Shown here piece by piece: positions 18,807-24,828 of a stretch of 64,000 nucleotides of DNA. The stretch is from the NCBI RefSeq assembly GCF_001898805.1, contig NZ_MKVJ01000014.1, positions 290,410-354,409 of the forward strand. Reading direction: 5' to 3'. Below the pieces are notes generated by a model that had not been told where the DNA came from, did no database searches, and worked only from the letters and a program-made list of their open reading frames with translations. The translations under genes were made by a program, and so were the position numbers. The first letter of the stretch is position 1. Each line of letters begins with the position of its first letter. This DNA comes from Leifsonia sp. 71-9 (lineage in GTDB: Bacteria; Actinomycetota; Actinomycetes; Actinomycetales; Microbacteriaceae).

Positions 18807-21155
18807 CTACGCGTCGACCGAGGCCCGCTCGCGCACGGCGCGCGTCGCCTCCAGGATGTTGCGCAGCGAGGCGACGGTCTCGTCGTAGCCGCGCGTCTTG
18901 AGACCGCAGTCCGGGTTGACCCAGAGCTGGCGGCCCGGGATGGCGCTGAGCGCGGTCTCGAGTAGCTCGGTGACCTCGGCGACCGACGGCACGCGCGGCG
19001 AGTGGATGTCGTAGACGCCCGGGCCGATGCCGTGCTCGAATCCGGAGGTCTGGATGTCGTGGACGACCTCCATCCGGCTGCGGGCGGCCTCGATGCTGGT
19101 CACGTCGGCGTCGAGGTTGCGGATCGCGTCGATCACCACGCCGAACTCCGAGTAGCAGAGGTGGGTGTGGATCTGCGTCTCGTCGCGGACACCCGCGGTC
19201 GCCAGGCGGAAGGAGCCGACCGACCAGTCGAGGTAGTCGTCCTGTGCCGCACGCTTCAGCGGGAGCAGCTCGCGCAGCGCGGGCTCGTCGACCTGGACGA
19301 CGCGGATGCCCGCCGACTCCAGGTCCTCGATCTCGTCGCGCAGCGCGAGGGCGACCTGGCGGGCGGTCTCGCCGAGCGGCTGGTCGTCGCGGACGAACGA
19401 CCACGCGAGGATCGTCACCGGGCCGGTCAGCATCCCCTTGACCGGCTTCTCGGTCAGGCTCTGCGTGTAGGTCGACCAGTCCACCGTGATGGGCTTCGGC
19501 CGCGAGACGTCGCCCCACAGGATCGAGGGCCGCGTGCAGCGGGAGCCGTAGGACTGCACCCAGCCGTTCTGCGTGACCGCGAAGCCGTCGAGGTTCTCGG
19601 CGAAGTACTGGACCATGTCGTTGCGCTCGGGCTCGCCGTGCACGATGACGTCGATCCCGATCTCCTCCTGGAGGTCGACGACGCGCTTGATCTCCGCCTG
19701 CATGCGGGCGAGGTACTCCGCCTCGGTGATGAGGCCCTTCACCAGCTGGGCGCGCGAGCGGCGGATGTCCCCGGTCTGCGGGAACGAGCCGATGGTCGTG
19801 GTCGGGAGGAACGGCAGGCCGAGGGCCGCGTCCTGGGCCGCCAGGCGGTCCTCGTACGCGCCGCGGCGGAAGTCCGCCTCGGTGAGCGCCGCCTCCCGGG
19901 CCCGCACCGCGTCGACGCGCACGCCGGGAGCGGAGGCGCGGTCCGCGAGGGAGGCCGTGGCCGCCGTCAGGTCGTCCTGGATCGACTCGTGGCCGTCGAC
20001 CAGCCCGCGGGCGAGGATCGCGATCTGCGCGACCTTCTGGTCGGCGAAGGCGAGCCAGCTCTTCAGGCGCCCGTCGAGCTCCGGCTCGTCCTCGACGTCG
20101 TGCGGCACGTGCAGGAGCGAGGTGGAGGTGGACACCGCGACGTCCGGGCTCAGCGACAGCAGTTCGGTCAGCGAGCCGAAGGCCGCCTCCAGGTCGCCGC
20201 GCCAGATGTTGTGGCCGTCGACCACGCCGCCGACGATGGTCTTCGTCGCGAGCGAACCGGCGGTCTGCGCGTCGAGCCCCGTCGGCAGGGAGCCGCGGAC
20301 CAGGTCGAGGGAGATCGCCTCCACCGGCGACGCGGCGAGCACCGGGAGGGCGTCGTCCAGGCTGCCGTAGGGCGCGGCCACGAAGAGGGCCGGCCGCTCG
20401 GCGACGGCGCCGAGGTCGGCGTACGCCGTGCGCAGCGCCTCCAGCACCTCCGCCCGCGGCTCCTCGATGCTCTCGCTGACGAGCGCCGGCTCGTCCAGCT
20501 GCACCCACGGTGCGCCAGCGGCGCCGAGCCGGGTGAGCAGTTCGCGGTACACCGGCAGCAGGTCCGCCAGGCGCGAGAGCGGACGGAAGCCCTCGGGCGC
20601 CTCGTCCGACGCCTTGCTCAGGAGGAGGAACGTCACCGGTCCGACGATCACCGGGCGGGTGACGAAGCCGGCGTCGCGCGCCTCCTCGAACTCCCGCACC
20701 AGGCGGTCGGACGCCAGGCGGAAGTCGGTCTCCGGTCCGATCTCGGGCACGAGGTAGTGGTAGTTGGAGTCGAACCACTTCGTCATCTCGAGCGGCGCGT
20801 TGTCGCCCTCGCCGCGCGCGATGGTGAAGTAGCCGGCGAGGTCGACGGTGCCGTCCGCCCCGACGAGCCCGGCGAACCGGGTCGGCACGGCTCCGACGGC
20901 GACCGCGGCGTCGAGCACCTGGTCGTAGTAGCTGAAGCTCTCCGGGATGGCGGCGTCGTCGCGTCCCAGGCCGAGGGCGGCGAGGCGCTCGCGCGTCGCA
21001 GCGCGCAGGCCCGCGGCGGTCGCCTCCAGCTCGTCCGCCGTGATGGCGCCGGCCCAGAAGGACTCGACGGCCTTCTTGAGCTCGCGGCGGCGCCCGATGC
21101 GCGGGTAGCCGAGGATCGTTCCGGCCGGGAAGGCGGCGCGGGAGGTGGAGGTCAT
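18807..21155 (-). CDS. metE: cobalamin-independent methionine synthase
   Basis: 782-residue MetE, which transfers the methyl of 5-methyl-THF-(Glu)n to homocysteine. The N-terminal half starts ILGYPRIGRRRELKKAVE. The C-terminal half has FPQTGDIRRSRAQ, IVHGEPERNDMVQYFAE, and the zinc ligands in IHTHLCYSEFG (His, Cys) and WVNPDCGLKTR (Cys). The ATG at 21155 overlaps the metF stop (ATGA), so metF and metE form one operon behind the predicted SAM riboswitch. Confidence 0.97.
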   Translation of the reverse strand: MTSTSRAAFPAGTILGYPRIGRRRELKKAVESFWAGAITADELEATAAGLRAATRERLAALGLGRDDAAIPESFSYYDQVLDAAVAVGAVPTRFAGLVGADGTVDLAGYFTIARGEGDNAPLEMTKWFDSNYHYLVPEIGPETDFRLASDRLVREFEEARDAGFVTRPVIVGPVTFLLLSKASDEAPEGFRPLSRLADLLPVYRELLTRLGAAGAPWVQLDEPALVSESIEEPRAEVLEALRTAYADLGAVAERPALFVAAPYGSLDDALPVLAASPVEAISLDLVRGSLPTGLDAQTAGSLATKTIVGGVVDGHNIWRGDLEAAFGSLTELLSLSPDVAVSTSTSLLHVPHDVEDEPELDGRLKSWLAFADQKVAQIAILARGLVDGHESIQDDLTAATASLADRASAPGVRVDAVRAREAALTEADFRRGAYEDRLAAQDAALGLPFLPTTTIGSFPQTGDIRRSRAQLVKGLITEAEYLARMQAEIKRVVDLQEEIGIDVIVHGEPERNDMVQYFAENLDGFAVTQNGWVQSYGSRCTRPSILWGDVSRPKPITVDWSTYTQSLTEKPVKGMLTGPVTILAWSFVRDDQPLGETARQVALALRDEIEDLESAGIRVVQVDEPALRELLPLKRAAQDDYLDWSVGSFRLATAGVRDETQIHTHLCYSEFGVVIDAIRNLDADVTSIEAARSRMEVVHDIQTSGFEHGIGPGVYDIHSPRVPSVAEVTELLETALSAIPGRQLWVNPDCGLKTRGYDETVASLRNILEATRAVRERASVDA

Positions 21156-22114
21156 GCTGGTTCCCTTTCGGTTGCGGAGGAGGTGGAGTCGGGGGCGGGC
21201 AGCGCGCCGATCCGGTCGAGGACCGACAGCACCGCCTCGCTCTGGTTGAAGGTGTAGAGGTGGAGGCCCGGTGCGCCGCCGTCGAGCAGCCGGCGGCCGA
21301 GGCGGGCCGCCCACTCGATGCCGATCTCGCGGCGTCCCTCGTCGGTCGGCTCGACCTCCAGCTGGATCGCCAGATCGCTCGGGAGGTCCTCGCCGCTCAG
21401 CTCGAGCATCCGGCTCAGGCGGGCGGGCGAGGTCACGGGCATGATGCCGGGCAGGATCGGGAACGCGACGCCCGCATCCTTCGCCTTCTGCGCGAACGAC
21501 AAGTAGTCCTCCGCGTGGAAGAAGAGCTGCGTGATGCCGAGATTCGCGCCGGCCGCCTGCTTCGCGAGGAGCGCGTCGATGTCCTGGGAGATCGAGTGCG
21601 AGGCCGGATGCCCGTTCGGGAAGGCGGCGACCGCGATCTGCACGTGCTCCCGGTGCGCGAGCACGGCCTGAGCGGGCAGCCCCGGCACCGGCAGCTCGCC
21701 GTACGGGACCCGCTCGGCCTGCACCCGGTGGATGAGCTGCACGAGCTCGGCCGAGCTGTGGATGTCGCCGATACCGTCCTCGCCCGGCGCCGCGTCCTCC
21801 GGCGGATCCCCGCGCACCGCGAGGAACCGGCGCACCCCCGCGTCGAGGAACTCGCGGATGAGGCGGTTGGCCTCCTCGTGCGAAGATCCCACGCAGGTCA
21901 GGTGCGCCATCGGGCTGACGTCGGTGCGCTCCAGGATGTGGCGCAGCACGTCGAGCGACGACGTGCGGGAGGAGCCGTTCGCCCCGTAGGTCACGGAGAT
22001 GAAGTCCGGGCGCGCAGCGGCGAGCCGGTCGATGGTGGCGGGCAGCGCGGCGGCCGCCCGCTCGTTGCGCGGCGGGTAGAGCTCGAAGGAGTACCGCGCG
22101 GTGGTACAGCTCAT
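21152..22114 (-). CDS. metF: 5,10-methylenetetrahydrofolate reductase
   Basis: 320-residue FAD-dependent TIM-barrel enzyme that makes 5-methyl-THF for MetE. Family phrases are YSFELYPPRNE (catalytic Glu), SVTYGANGSSR, HLTCVGSS, VRRFLAVRGDPP and LGITQLFFHAEDYLSFA. ATG 22114 has GAGG 5 nt upstream. That GAGG lies within or next to the 3' strand of helix P1 of the predicted riboswitch, which offers a direct route for SAM control of translation. Confidence 0.96.
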   Translation of the reverse strand: MSCTTARYSFELYPPRNERAAAALPATIDRLAAARPDFISVTYGANGSSRTSSLDVLRHILERTDVSPMAHLTCVGSSHEEANRLIREFLDAGVRRFLAVRGDPPEDAAPGEDGIGDIHSSAELVQLIHRVQAERVPYGELPVPGLPAQAVLAHREHVQIAVAAFPNGHPASHSISQDIDALLAKQAAGANLGITQLFFHAEDYLSFAQKAKDAGVAFPILPGIMPVTSPARLSRMLELSGEDLPSDLAIQLEVEPTDEGRREIGIEWAARLGRRLLDGGAPGLHLYTFNQSEAVLSVLDRIGALPAPDSTSSATEREPA

Positions 22115-22120
22115 GAGGTC

Positions 22121-22221
22121 CTCAGGTGGTCGATCAGCGGCACGGACACCCCGCCTCGGACCTCACGGCCAGGGGCAGGGTTTCACGGGCGGGTGCCGGG
22201 CTCGGCTGTCGCACCACCGAG
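22121..22221 (-). ncRNA. predicted SAM-I/SAM-IV-superfamily riboswitch upstream of metF-metE
   Basis: On the minus strand the leader starts with CTCGGTGGT (22221-22213) and ends with ACCACCTGAG (22130-22121). These pair as P1 with one bulged A. Inside, AACCCTGCC and GGCGGGGTGTCC pair as a P3-like arm, followed by GCTGATCGACC. The order AACCCU-CC, GG-GGGGUG-CC, UGAU-ACC is that of SAM-IV/SAM-I-IV-variant RNAs. The P1 3' strand includes the Shine-Dalgarno GAGG of metF, so ligand-stabilised P1 would hide it. A cobalamin RNA is less likely because no B12 box is visible. Confidence 0.6.
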
Positions 22222-22247
22222 CGGTCGTCCGCTGCGGTTGAGTGCCG

Positions 22248-22253
22248 AATCTA
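22248..22253 (-). promoter_or_regulatory. possible -10 of the metF-metE operon
   Basis: TAGATT on the minus strand would start transcription about 20 nt before riboswitch helix P1. The -35 position (TTCCGT) is poor. Confidence 0.35.
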
Positions 22254-22262
22254 GCAACGGGA

Positions 22263-22318
22263 AAGGCCGGACGGAATCGCGGGTGTCATCATTCGACACA
22301 CGCGCTCCGTCCGGCCTT
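22263..22318 (-). terminator. strong long hairpin terminator after the Ltp-repeat gene
   Basis: Perfect 13-bp arms AAGGCCGGACGGA (22263-22275) and TCCGTCCGGCCTT (22306-22318). The loop itself pairs (CGCG, then GTGTC ... GACAC, then CGCG). It begins 14 nt after the stop of the Ltp-type gene and is followed on the minus strand by TTTCCCGTT. Confidence 0.75.
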
Positions 22319-22332
22319 CCGACGAGATCGGA

Positions 22333-23199
22333 TCAGTCGTTCAGATGCTGCACCGCATAGTCGGCTTCCTCCGGCGTGAACTTCTCGCCGTACTCGCTCA
22401 CCAGCTGGTCGCGGATCGCCTCGGGCGACATGCTCATCTGGCTCTGGTAGCTCTTCGCCTTCGCCAAGGCGTTCGCTCCCCAGTCCGCCGCGACGTTGTC
22501 GATCGCGTACTGGGCCGCTTCCGCGGAGAACTTCTCACCGTACTGACTCGTGAGCTGGTCGTAGATGCCGGCCTTGCTCATGTGCATCATGCTCGAGTAG
22601 GAGCCGGCCTTCCTGAGCGCCGAGGTGAACTCGGCGGGGACAGCCGGAGCCGCCGGCGCGGGAGGGGCGGGCGGAACCGTGGGGGTGGGCGCAGGGGGCG
22701 TCGTCGCGGTCGGCGACGGCTGCGCGGGCGGCGTCGCCGTCGGCTCGACCGTCGACTGGGCCACGAGGGGAGCATCCGCCGAGATCCGCGGAGCCACGCT
22801 CGCGACGCCGACCGTCATCCCGAGGGAGGCCACGACAGCGAGCGAACCGAGCACGATGCCGGTGACGCTCTGCCCCTTCGACAGGCGAGCGCGCAACGCG
22901 AGCACGGCGAAGACGATGGCCGCGGCCCCGAGGAGGGCGCCGAGCACGGGGACGAGGCCGAGCAGGATCGCCACGATGCCGGCGATGAGGGCGAGGAGCG
23001 CCCATGGTGCGCCCTTGGACGCGACGGCGGTGGGGGCCGGAGCCACGTTCGCGGTCAGCGGCCCACTGATCGTCTGGTCGTCGACCGCCTGGTTGTCGAT
23101 CGCCTGGTAGTCATCGGTCCATCGGGTCCCATCCCACCAGCGCAGACGGCCGGAGCCGTCGTCGTACCATCCTGCTGCTGCGCTTGTTCCTTCGTTCAC
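22333..23199 (-). CDS. membrane protein with DUF2510 and two Ltp (Host_surface) repeats
   Basis: 288 residues. An N-terminal DUF2510 tryptophan-rich module (AGWYDDGSGRLRWWDGTRWT, about 10-30) comes first, then two membrane helices (about 65-90 and 105-130). A long Pro/Thr/Ala spacer leads to two C-terminal Ltp repeats: AGSYSSMMHMSKAGIYDQL with YGEKFSAEAAQYAIDNV, and a second ending YGEKFTPEEADYAVQHL. In phage TP-J34 Ltp these helix-turn-helix-like repeats block DNA injection by superinfecting phages. Chromosomal copies are common and mostly unstudied. The GTG start at 23199 lies 6 nt after a TAGGTT -10, so the mRNA is probably leaderless. Confidence 0.85.
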   Translation of the reverse strand: MNEGTSAAAGWYDDGSGRLRWWDGTRWTDDYQAIDNQAVDDQTISGPLTANVAPAPTAVASKGAPWALLALIAGIVAILLGLVPVLGALLGAAAIVFAVLALRARLSKGQSVTGIVLGSLAVVASLGMTVGVASVAPRISADAPLVAQSTVEPTATPPAQPSPTATTPPAPTPTVPPAPPAPAAPAVPAEFTSALRKAGSYSSMMHMSKAGIYDQLTSQYGEKFSAEAAQYAIDNVAADWGANALAKAKSYQSQMSMSPEAIRDQLVSEYGEKFTPEEADYAVQHLND

Positions 23200-23286: not shown

Positions 23287-24798
23287 TCAGACCGCGAACG
23301 GCTCGAACACCGCCGTGTACTCCGGCATGATCTTCGCGTGCACGCGGGTGCCCTCCTCCACGTACTCCGTGGAGAGGACGCGTCCGCGCTCGTGCAGGGC
23401 CGAGATCAGGTCGCCGCGGTCGTACGGCACCACGAGCTCCACCTCCACCGAGAGGTCGGGCAGCAGTCGTGAGATCGCCGCCAGCACCTCGTCGATGCCT
23501 TCGCCCGTACGGGCGGAGGCGAAGATCGCTCCGGGCTCCAGGCCGCGCAGCACGAGCCGCTCGTCCGGTCCGATCAGGTCGGACTTGTTGAAGACCACGA
23601 TCTCCGGGATGTCGCGGGCACCGACCTCGCCGATCACGTCGCGCACCGTCGCCAGCTGCGACGCGGGGTCGGGGTGGGAGCCGTCGACGACGTGCAGGAT
23701 GACGTCGGAGTCGGCCACCTCCTCCAGGGTCGAGCGGAACGCCTCCACCAGCTGGTGCGGCAGGTTGCGCACGAAACCGACCGTGTCAGCCAGCGTGTAC
23801 AGCCGGCCGTCGGCGGTCACCGAGCGGCGCACGGTCGCGTCGAGGGTCGCGAACAGCGCGTTCTCGACGAGCACGCCCGCCTTGGTGACGCGGTTCAGGA
23901 GGCTCGACTTGCCTGCGTTGGTGTAACCCGCGATCGCGACCGAGGGCACCGAGTTGCGGTTGCGGTTCGCGCGCTTGGCCTCACGGGCCGGCTTGAACCC
24001 GGCGATCTGCTTGCGCAGCTTCGCCATCCGCGTGTGGATGCGCCGCCGGTCCAGCTCGATCTTCGTCTCACCGGGACCGCGCGAGCCCATGCCCGCACCG
24101 GCCCCGCCGACCTGGCCACCGGCCTGGCGCGACATCGACTCACCCCAGCCGCGCAGGCGCGGGAGCAGGTACTCGAGCTGCGCGAGCTCGACCTGCGCCT
24201 TGCCCTCGCGGCTCTTGGCGTGCTGGCTGAAGATGTCGAGGATCACCGCGGTGCGGTCGATCACCTTCACTTTCACGACGTCCTCCAGCGCGCGCCGCTG
24301 GCTGGAGGCGAGCTCCGTGTCGGCCACGACCGTGTCCGCGCCGAGGGCGGCGACCACGCTCGCGAGCTCCTCCGCCTTGCCGCGGCCCAGGTACGTGCTC
24401 GGGTCGGGGTGCGGGCGGCGCTGCAGCAGGCCGTCGAGCACCACGGCGCCCGCGGTCTCCGCGAGGGCCGCGAGCTCGCGCATGGAGTTCTCGGCGTCCT
24501 GCAGGCTGCCCTGCGAGTACACGCCGATCAGCACCACGTTCTCGAGCCGCAGCTGCCGGTACTCGACCTCCGTGACGTCCTCGAGCTCGGTCGAGAGGCC
24601 GCTGACGCGGCGCAGGGCCGCACGCTCCTCCCGGTCGAACTGCTCGCCGTCGTGCGAGCCGTCGGCGGTCGCCGTCGACTGCAGCGCCTGCGCCCCTGTT
24701 CCGAACAGGGTCACGCTCGCGCGGTTCTTCTCGGTCGCCAGCACGCGCGCGACGACATCGTCGGCCTCGTGTTCTTCGATATTCGTTCGTTCAGTCAT
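23287..24798 (-). CDS. hflX: ribosome-associated GTPase HflX
   Basis: 503-residue translational GTPase of the Obg-HflX class, implicated in splitting or rescuing stalled ribosomes. The N-terminal HflX domain includes RPHPDPSTYLGRGKAEEL and the glycine-rich GGQVGGAGAGMGSRGPGETK. The G domain has G1 GYTNAGKSSLLN, G3 ADTVGFVRNLPH and G4 FNKSD. A C-terminal extension (about 420-503) is present. ATG 24798 is preferred over an upstream reading. It is divergent from a methyltransferase gene. Confidence 0.95.
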   Translation of the reverse strand: MTERTNIEEHEADDVVARVLATEKNRASVTLFGTGAQALQSTATADGSHDGEQFDREERAALRRVSGLSTELEDVTEVEYRQLRLENVVLIGVYSQGSLQDAENSMRELAALAETAGAVVLDGLLQRRPHPDPSTYLGRGKAEELASVVAALGADTVVADTELASSQRRALEDVVKVKVIDRTAVILDIFSQHAKSREGKAQVELAQLEYLLPRLRGWGESMSRQAGGQVGGAGAGMGSRGPGETKIELDRRRIHTRMAKLRKQIAGFKPAREAKRANRNRNSVPSVAIAGYTNAGKSSLLNRVTKAGVLVENALFATLDATVRRSVTADGRLYTLADTVGFVRNLPHQLVEAFRSTLEEVADSDVILHVVDGSHPDPASQLATVRDVIGEVGARDIPEIVVFNKSDLIGPDERLVLRGLEPGAIFASARTGEGIDEVLAAISRLLPDLSVEVELVVPYDRGDLISALHERGRVLSTEYVEEGTRVHAKIMPEYTAVFEPFAV

Positions 24799-24828
24799 CG
24801 TTCGTCCCCGTTCCGGGTCCATCCCAGT

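What the first reader, a model, noticed from the sequence alone, without database searches (positions are those of the whole stretch)
22115..22221. SAM-family riboswitch whose P1 helix appears to contain the metF ribosome binding site
The metF leader shows P1 and P3-like pairings and the AACCCU...GGGGUG...UGAU-ACC order of SAM-IV-type RNAs, with the GAGG of metF inside the closing strand. This would couple SAM binding directly to start-site masking of metF and, through the ATGA overlap, metE. The details differ enough from textbook SAM-I to suggest a variant class.
Basis: partly seen in the sequence, partly recalled or inferred. Interest (0 to 1): 0.62.

Follow-up and report, generated by a model that had tools for sequence, protein, structure and literature searches.

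The report
Undescribed metF leader RNA in Microbacteriaceae
The start of the metF-metE message carries a small, strongly conserved folded RNA that recurs before these methionine-making genes across one bacterial family, fits no RNA family in the library searched, and looks like an unidentified gene switch rather than the proposed SAM-IV riboswitch.

Summary
A conserved structured leader RNA precedes metF-metE on the minus strand, but SAM-IV membership is not supported. No Rfam 15 SAM family matches the leader even at E<=10. The SAM-IV model finds 24 of 140 family genomes, not this one.

The conserved part is a 24-nt core, GCGACAGCCGAGCCCGGCAYCCGC (window 22212..22189), exact in those 26; a 27th genus leader, L024, lacks it. 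It occurs in 108 of 398 Microbacteriaceae genomes (<=3 mismatches). Of 110 hits, 99 lie upstream of metF on its strand. No hit at E<=0.001 was seen outside the family. It forms a hairpin with compensatory changes, follows a variable hairpin and lies downstream of a -10-like box in 80 of 96 leaders.

Best reading: an orphan cis-regulatory RNA, possibly a new riboswitch class. Ligand and direction are unknown.

The parts
22248..22253 (-). -10-like box TAGATT; transcription start inferred near 22241
   Evidence: sequence; TANNNT in 80 of 96 diverse leaders at -62..-28 from the core; 5-nt bins at -50, -45, -40 and -35 hold 24, 16, 27 and 8 against 1.4-1.8 expected
22216..22238 (-). H1: 5' hairpin ACCG-(C)-AGCGG-ACGA-CCGCU-CGGU
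   Evidence: folds in the window; in relatives the stem sequence varies and ends 4-5 nt before the core in 57 of 89 diverse leaders; stem score >=7 in 40 of 89 against 18.8% of shuffles
22189..22212 (-). H2: conserved core hairpin GCG-ACA-GCCG-AGCC-CGGC-ACC-CGC
   Evidence: exact in 26 of 27 genus leaders, L024 excepted; 25-mer in 108 of 398 family genomes at <=3 mismatches; covariation
22141..22187 (-). H3: possible third hairpin (CGUG ... CCCUGCC/GGCGGGG ... CGUG)
   Evidence: the MFE of the transcript ending at 22140 holds a hairpin here; in relatives a CGCGG 3' strand in 66 of 77 H3-type leaders against 21, 28 and 10 for three permuted words, but the fold test is no better than shuffled (44 of 77 against 42.3 expected)
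22205..22221 (-).
22121..22138 (-).
22120..22123 (-). metF Shine-Dalgarno GAGG
   Evidence: sequence
21152..22114 (-). metF, 5,10-methylenetetrahydrofolate reductase
   Evidence: PF02219, E 3.1e-71
18807..21155 (-). metE, cobalamin-independent methionine synthase; ATGA overlap with metF
   Evidence: PF01717 and PF08267 (on the longer ORF 18807..21314); start inferred from the ATGA overlap

Best explanation
The metF-metE mRNA of this Leifsonia relative begins with a cis-regulatory RNA that is conserved in Microbacteriaceae and matched by no Rfam family. Shown: a variable 5' hairpin (H1) followed by an almost invariant ~24-nt hairpin (H2: two short stems, a 3x3 internal loop, an AGCC apical loop), downstream of a predicted promoter, with strong hits nearly always upstream of metF or metE. 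Inferred: H2 is the sensor. A factor that stabilises or dissolves H2 would therefore set metF translation and, through the ATGA overlap, metE translation. A small molecule of the methionine cycle is judged the likeliest factor; a protein is the main alternative. Ligand identity and ON/OFF direction are not determined.
For: Gene context: 110 core hits in 108 of 398 family genomes; 99 are upstream of metF on its strand within 3 kb, 97 of those at 51-231 nt. Of the 89 hits with <=1 mismatch, 87 are near metF; the other two are G034 (no metF match) and G359 (metF pieces adjacent, its place not printed). In genome contigs, 116 of 120 core places have a metF or metE match within 250 nt. G178 has a copy before metE (L280) as well as one before metF. 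RNA rather than DNA or peptide: -10-like box upstream of the core; 4 pairs and 10 cells with changes on both sides against shuffled means of 1.1 and 1.3 (0/500 each), including GCG/CGC to GCA/UGC (L257, L259, L260), CCG/CGG to CAG/CUG (L077, L080) and GGAGCG/CGCCC to AAGCG/CGCUU (L242 group). Competition: P1 kept in 24 of 26 Leifsonia leaders; the window RNA is nearly bistable, -59.8 against -58.2 kcal/mol, and prefixes ending at 22185, 22160 and 22140 fold H1+H2. The genome has no metH match.
Against: No binding or expression data. Forcing the core changes computed SD accessibility little: up by >0.1 in 6 and down in 1 of 26 Leifsonia leaders (means 0.37 to 0.42), up in 6 and down in 1 of 16 scored of 18 hand-picked compact leaders (means 0.33 to 0.46); in the window the SD stays half paired with H1+H2 forced. 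The SD is paired to the first 14 nt after the core in 13 of 27 compact leaders against 29% in a control, and in 6 of 35 longer leaders; some start codons were probably misassigned. P1 is not general outside Leifsonia. The 4/29 position of the extended stem is unpaired in 42 of 50 distinct sequences, and slid controls reach the same covariation score (0.072 and 0.075 against 0.071) though they pair far fewer cells. 50 of 149 tabulated metF genomes lack a nearby core within 3 mismatches; of 39 such leaders fetched, 4 match the model at E<2e-5 and 7 only at the central 12 nt (E 0.08), so many metF leaders of the family have no recognised core.
Confidence: 0.6

Rival explanations
1. The core hairpin is a binding site for a regulatory RNA-binding protein (or a trans-acting small RNA) rather than a metabolite aptamer; the leader is a protein-controlled switch or an mRNA stability element.
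For: Only ~24 nt are strongly conserved, and the apical loop is invariant in 83 aligned core regions, which suits protein recognition. A variable hairpin followed by a conserved hairpin resembles protein-bound tandem hairpins.
Against: Nothing identifies a protein partner; no co-occurring regulator was searched for. Strong hits are nearly restricted to metE/metF genes, which suits a pathway sensor, though a dedicated protein would do the same.
Confidence: 0.27
2. Divergent SAM-IV / SAM-I-clan riboswitch.
For: Gene context (metF/metE) and a short resemblance to SAM-I/IV core letters (GCCCGGCA-CC), the latter recalled from memory.
Against: No SAM model at E<=10 on the window leader, no Rfam match at gathering in 19 loci of relatives, none at E<=1 in 6 further leaders; the three words together in 1 of 26 leaders. 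SAM-IV is recognised in 24 of 140 family genomes, and G108, G175 and G176 carry it elsewhere in the genome beside the new element (G175) or its central hairpin (G108, G176) at metF.
Confidence: 0.04
3. A translated upstream ORF (leader peptide R-Q-P-S-P-A-P-A) that attenuates by ribosome stalling.
For: The frame CGA CAG CCG AGC CCG GCA CCC GCC is open through the core; 73 of 133 leaders have an in-frame ATG/GTG/TTG in the 36 nt upstream, against 34 and 41 in the other two frames. The stop overlaps the scripted metF start in 16 of 133.
Against: 60 of 133 have no such start; the ORF runs past the metF start in 77 and stops before it in 40. Codon variation is not synonymous-biased: CAG/CCG/AAG/ACG at codon 2, CCC/TCC at codon 7, CGA and AGC unchanged in 133. 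Most of the set was selected by a sequence pattern, which limits this test.
Confidence: 0.04
4. A DNA operator of a methionine transcription factor.
For: The core is an imperfect inverted repeat close to the promoter.
Against: It lies downstream of the -10-like box, with compensatory changes in both stems and a variable-sequence hairpin at a preferred distance, which point to RNA.
Confidence: 0.03
5. An ANTAR-protein target RNA (tandem hexaloop hairpins).
For: Tandem hairpins with a short linker; ANTAR RNAs are reported in Microbacterium (PMC8164766, passages).
Against: ANTAR hairpins have hexanucleotide loops with A1 and G4 (PMC8164766). Here the loop counted as a hexaloop is GAGCCC (G1, C4), and the H1 loop varies in length.
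Confidence: 0.02

Closest known systems
SAM-IV riboswitch (Rfam RF00634)
   Same: Leader RNA class of Actinobacteria tied to SAM/methionine (general knowledge); present in the same family (24 of 140 genomes).
   Different: No covariance match here; a 24-nt hairpin core instead of the 116-position SAM-IV model; some genomes carry both.
SAM-I-IV variant (Rfam RF01725)
   Different: 2 of 140 family genomes match, one over the cut-off; the window genome does not.
ANTAR-target RNAs (PMC8164766, passages read)
   Same: Tandem hairpins separated by a short linker.
   Different: Loops lack A1/G4, and H1 has no fixed hexaloop.
Translational riboswitches with mutually exclusive SD-masking helices (general knowledge)
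   Same: A conserved hairpin competes with a helix that pairs the Shine-Dalgarno.
   Different: Ligand unknown; apparently more than one expression platform in one family.

Membership tests
SAM-IV riboswitch RF00634 | covariance-model match at gathering score (38 bits) | tested here: not met
   (E<=10); positive controls C. glutamicum and 24 of 140 family genomes
   5, 7 and 4 of 26 genus leaders; all three in 1, the window's own
SAM-IV riboswitch RF00634 | binds SAM | not testable with these tools
   needs in-line probing or ITC
SAM-I-IV variant RF01725 | covariance-model match | tested here: not met
ANTAR-target RNA | two hexanucleotide loops with A1 and G4 | tested here: not met
   definition from PMC8164766; loops
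Leader-peptide attenuator | conserved start codon and synonymous variation in the frame | tested here: not met
   on a partly pattern-selected set
cis-regulatory structured leader RNA (general kind) | conserved RNA structure with compensatory changes | tested here: met
   covariation score alone is matched by two slid controls
cis-regulatory structured leader RNA (general kind) | consistent position 5' of functionally related genes, inside the transcript | tested here: met
   transcript start predicted, not mapped
riboswitch | direct binding of a small ligand by the RNA | not testable with these tools
   no binding data
riboswitch | mutually exclusive structures involving the ribosome binding site | tested here: inconclusive

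The most novel reading that the evidence does not exclude
A new riboswitch class: a minimal 24-nt hairpin aptamer, preceded by a generic 5' hairpin, that senses a methionine-cycle metabolite (homocysteine, SAH, SAM or a methyl-folate) and gates translation of metF-metE. Because folding of the core excludes the SD-masking helix in Leifsonia, and in some compact leaders of other genera, it may be an ON switch, as expected for a substrate or intermediate such as homocysteine rather than for the end product SAM.
Probability: 0.35. Interest if true: 0.82.

Novelty: new variant of a known kind. Interest (0 to 1): 0.62.

Why it matters
It would add an orphan regulatory RNA at a central metabolic step (methyl-folate to methionine) in a large environmental family where SAM-IV riboswitches are also found. 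The core is short, almost invariant and nearly specific to metE/metF, so ligand candidates are few and the hypothesis is directly testable in vitro. It also shows how a correct eye for structure can be filed under the wrong family: the letters that suggested SAM-IV occur together in one of 26 genus leaders.

Tried and rejected
SAM-clan membership by covariance models at gathering and at permissive E-values: rejected. The six permissive hits are five miRNA models on the intergenic inverted repeat and sRNA P5 inside metF, all far below their gathering scores; judged chance.

The first alignment of the genus leaders was useless because reverse-strand loci were not turned; replaced by oriented extraction. 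The 80-nt alignment was not used for counts. A first pair count on 70 sequences gave 2 pairs and 3 cells with double changes (5 and 0 of 500 shuffles reach them), with a slid control above it on the covariation score (0.090 against 0.038); one search adds 13 variants.

Pairing of the core with downstream sequence: complements of the loop are not enriched (GGCTC 18 against 14.2; GGGCT 8 against 7.5); complements of the CGACA/GACAG and CGGCA/GGCAC positions are (41 and 40 against 21.6 and 18.7; 72 and 55 against 37.3 and 35.3), without correction for relatedness. Anti-core duplexes near the start show nothing family-wide. Outside Leifsonia, CTGTC and GCTGT are more frequent than most permuted words (3 and 1 of 29 reach them), but the hexamers CTGTCG and GCTGTC are not: left open.

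uORF, DNA operator, ANTAR: see rivals. H3: word test positive, fold test negative: left open.

Outside the family, 14 order-level genomes had weak matches (best E 0.0013-0.087), treated as chance and not inspected. Searches used stricter filters that lose weak matches.

Literature: seven searches listed no paper that I recognised as describing such an element in Microbacteriaceae. The library lacks most subscription journals, so this is weak evidence of novelty. Passages only were read of PMC11009677, PMC6106888, PMC8164766 and PMC2864571; other papers were seen in search listings only.

Rows dropped: of the 110 hits only 30 came with loci; two of those (L062, L075) failed my stricter pattern and were not used. 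L150 (Streptomyces, no metF/metE match nearby) was left out of the structural sets but counts among the 120. L024 lacks the exact core and is outside the 26. Duplicates or near-duplicates were removed. In one search metF places were available for 149 of the 179 genomes. The compact set was picked by hand (18, of which 16 scored). Most relatives were collected with a sequence pattern, so core variation is underestimated.

Full report
What is there. On the minus strand a -10-like box (TAGATT, 22253..22248) lies about 133 nt before the metF start codon at 22114. metF (PF02219) and metE (PF08267 + PF01717) follow with an ATGA overlap. The window very probably belongs to Leifsonia: its closest genome G021 (MetF 98% identical) has a contig of 2,058,765 bases, the length of the L. 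aquatica DSM 20146 record (inference from lengths). The genome has no match to the MetH model TIGR02082, while the same search rings in 11 of 14 control genomes.

The SAM-IV reading. Rfam 15 gives no match at gathering in the whole window and none from any SAM family at E<=10 in the 401 bases around the leader. RF00634 is absent from the window genome, with C. glutamicum ringing as control. It is found over the cut-off in 24 of 140 family genomes, so the model works in this family. RF01725 matches 2 of 140, one over its cut-off. The SAM-IV assignment is not supported.

The conserved element. A DNA search finds the leader in 26 of 27 other genomes of the genus. The exact 24-mer GCGACAGCCGAGCCCGGCACCCGC (window 22212..22189) is in 26 of the 27 genus leaders with metF, the window included; L024 lacks it. 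Family-wide, the 25-mer with up to 3 mismatches occurs in 108 of 398 genomes, 36 of 85 genera, and its reversed control in 4. metF is found in 179 of 398. Of 110 core hits, 99 lie within 3 kb upstream of metF on the same strand, 97 at 51-231 nt. Of the 11 others, 7 are 3-mismatch hits, probably chance. The remaining four: G178 has a second copy before metE; G359 and G256 have metF matches in pieces next to the core; G034 has no metF match, and its leader now precedes an NtaA/DmoA-type monooxygenase gene. Titles were shown for 80; 74 name Microbacteriaceae taxa (placement of genera recalled), and the other six are four MAGs of broader or other names, a Planococcus and a Streptomyces record. 116 of the 120 places have a metF or metE match within 250 nt. 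In L028 and L131 a MetE-C-domain-like gene comes first and metF follows (weak PF01717 for L028). Covariance searches of 396 order-level and 394 class-level genomes gave matches at E<=0.001 only in the same family.

RNA, not DNA or peptide. A TANNNT box occurs 28-62 nt upstream of the core in 80 of 96 diverse leaders, far above expectation, so the core lies in the 5' UTR if these are promoters. In a gap-free alignment of 83 core regions (50 distinct) the two stems give 89.3% paired cells, 4 pairs with double changes and 10 double-changed cells, against shuffled means of 86.8%, 1.1 and 1.3, none of 500 shuffles reaching them. Examples are GCG/CGC to GCA/UGC, CCG/CGG to CAG/CUG, and a G-C flank to A-U. 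The covariation score alone is matched by two slid controls, and the 4/29 position is unpaired in 42 of 50. A hairpin of variable sequence (H1) precedes the core, ending 4-5 nt before it in 57 of 89 diverse leaders; 40 of 89 have a stem score of 7 or more against 18.8% of shuffles. The frame through the core lacks a consistent start, stop or synonymous pattern.

The helix 22221..22205 with 22138..22121 is in the MFE fold and pairs GAG of the Shine-Dalgarno. In Leifsonia it is retained even where the 3' strand is rewritten: mean z -2.13, 24 of 26 below -1. It uses the 5' arm of the core and the 3' strand of H1, so it excludes the core and H1 as drawn. In the window the two states differ by 1.6 kcal/mol; prefixes ending at 22185, 22160 and 22140 fold H1+H2, one ending at 22130 folds neither, and those ending at 22124 or later fold P1. 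Several compact leaders of other genera instead pair the segment just after the core with the SD. Forcing the core raises computed SD accessibility by more than 0.1 in 6 of 26 Leifsonia and 6 of 16 compact leaders and lowers it in 1 of each. In the window the SD goes from 0.24 to 0.49 unpaired. These numbers suggest, but do not show, that core folding favours translation.

What it most likely is. A cis-regulatory leader RNA of Microbacteriaceae metF/metE that Rfam 15 does not hold. That it is a conserved structured RNA rests and I hold it at about 0.9. That it works by competition for the SD is at about 0.5. That the sensor binds a small molecule rather than a protein is a judgement from gene specificity and compactness. 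In G108, G175 and G176 a SAM-IV element elsewhere in the genome coexists with the new element (G175, L257) or its AAGCG/CGCUU variant (L242, L250) at metF, so there it is not a stand-in for a lost SAM-IV.

Limits. Core variation is underestimated because most relatives were collected with a sequence pattern. About a third of the tabulated metF genomes (50 of 149) have no nearby core within 3 mismatches, and most of the 39 such leaders fetched showed none to the model. Some start codons were assigned by script and may be wrong. The literature library is partial.

Noticed in passing
22257..22322: Near-perfect inverted repeat between the upstream gene (22333..23199, -) and the metF promoter, probably a terminator; it draws only sub-threshold miRNA model hits.
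   Followed up: no
L059 1579..3050 (genome G034): The leader core is retained, but only an 18-residue ORF resembling the MetF N-terminus (by eye) follows, overlapping (ATGA) an NtaA/DmoA-family FMN monooxygenase gene; possibly a gene recruited to the same control.
   Followed up: partly
L028 251..1417 and L131 566..1732: A 388-aa MetE-C-domain-like protein sits between the leader and metF (L028: weak PF01717; L131 alike by eye).
   Followed up: partly
L289, L290, L291, L292, L293: Strong RF00634 hits in these family genomes have no methionine gene that I recognised by eye in the ORFs just downstream; in L289 and L291 the downstream proteins look alike. No family search was run on them.
   Followed up: partly
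window 23287..24822; upstream parts of L241, L255-L257, L259-L261, L263, L275: An HflX-like GTPase gene (name recalled from the sequence, not searched) lies near metF in the window, and similar C-terminal sequence lies directly upstream of metF in several relatives, suggesting old synteny.
   Followed up: no
L247, L251: metF leaders that keep an H1-like GGCGCC hairpin while the core hairpin appears lost (by eye).
   Followed up: no
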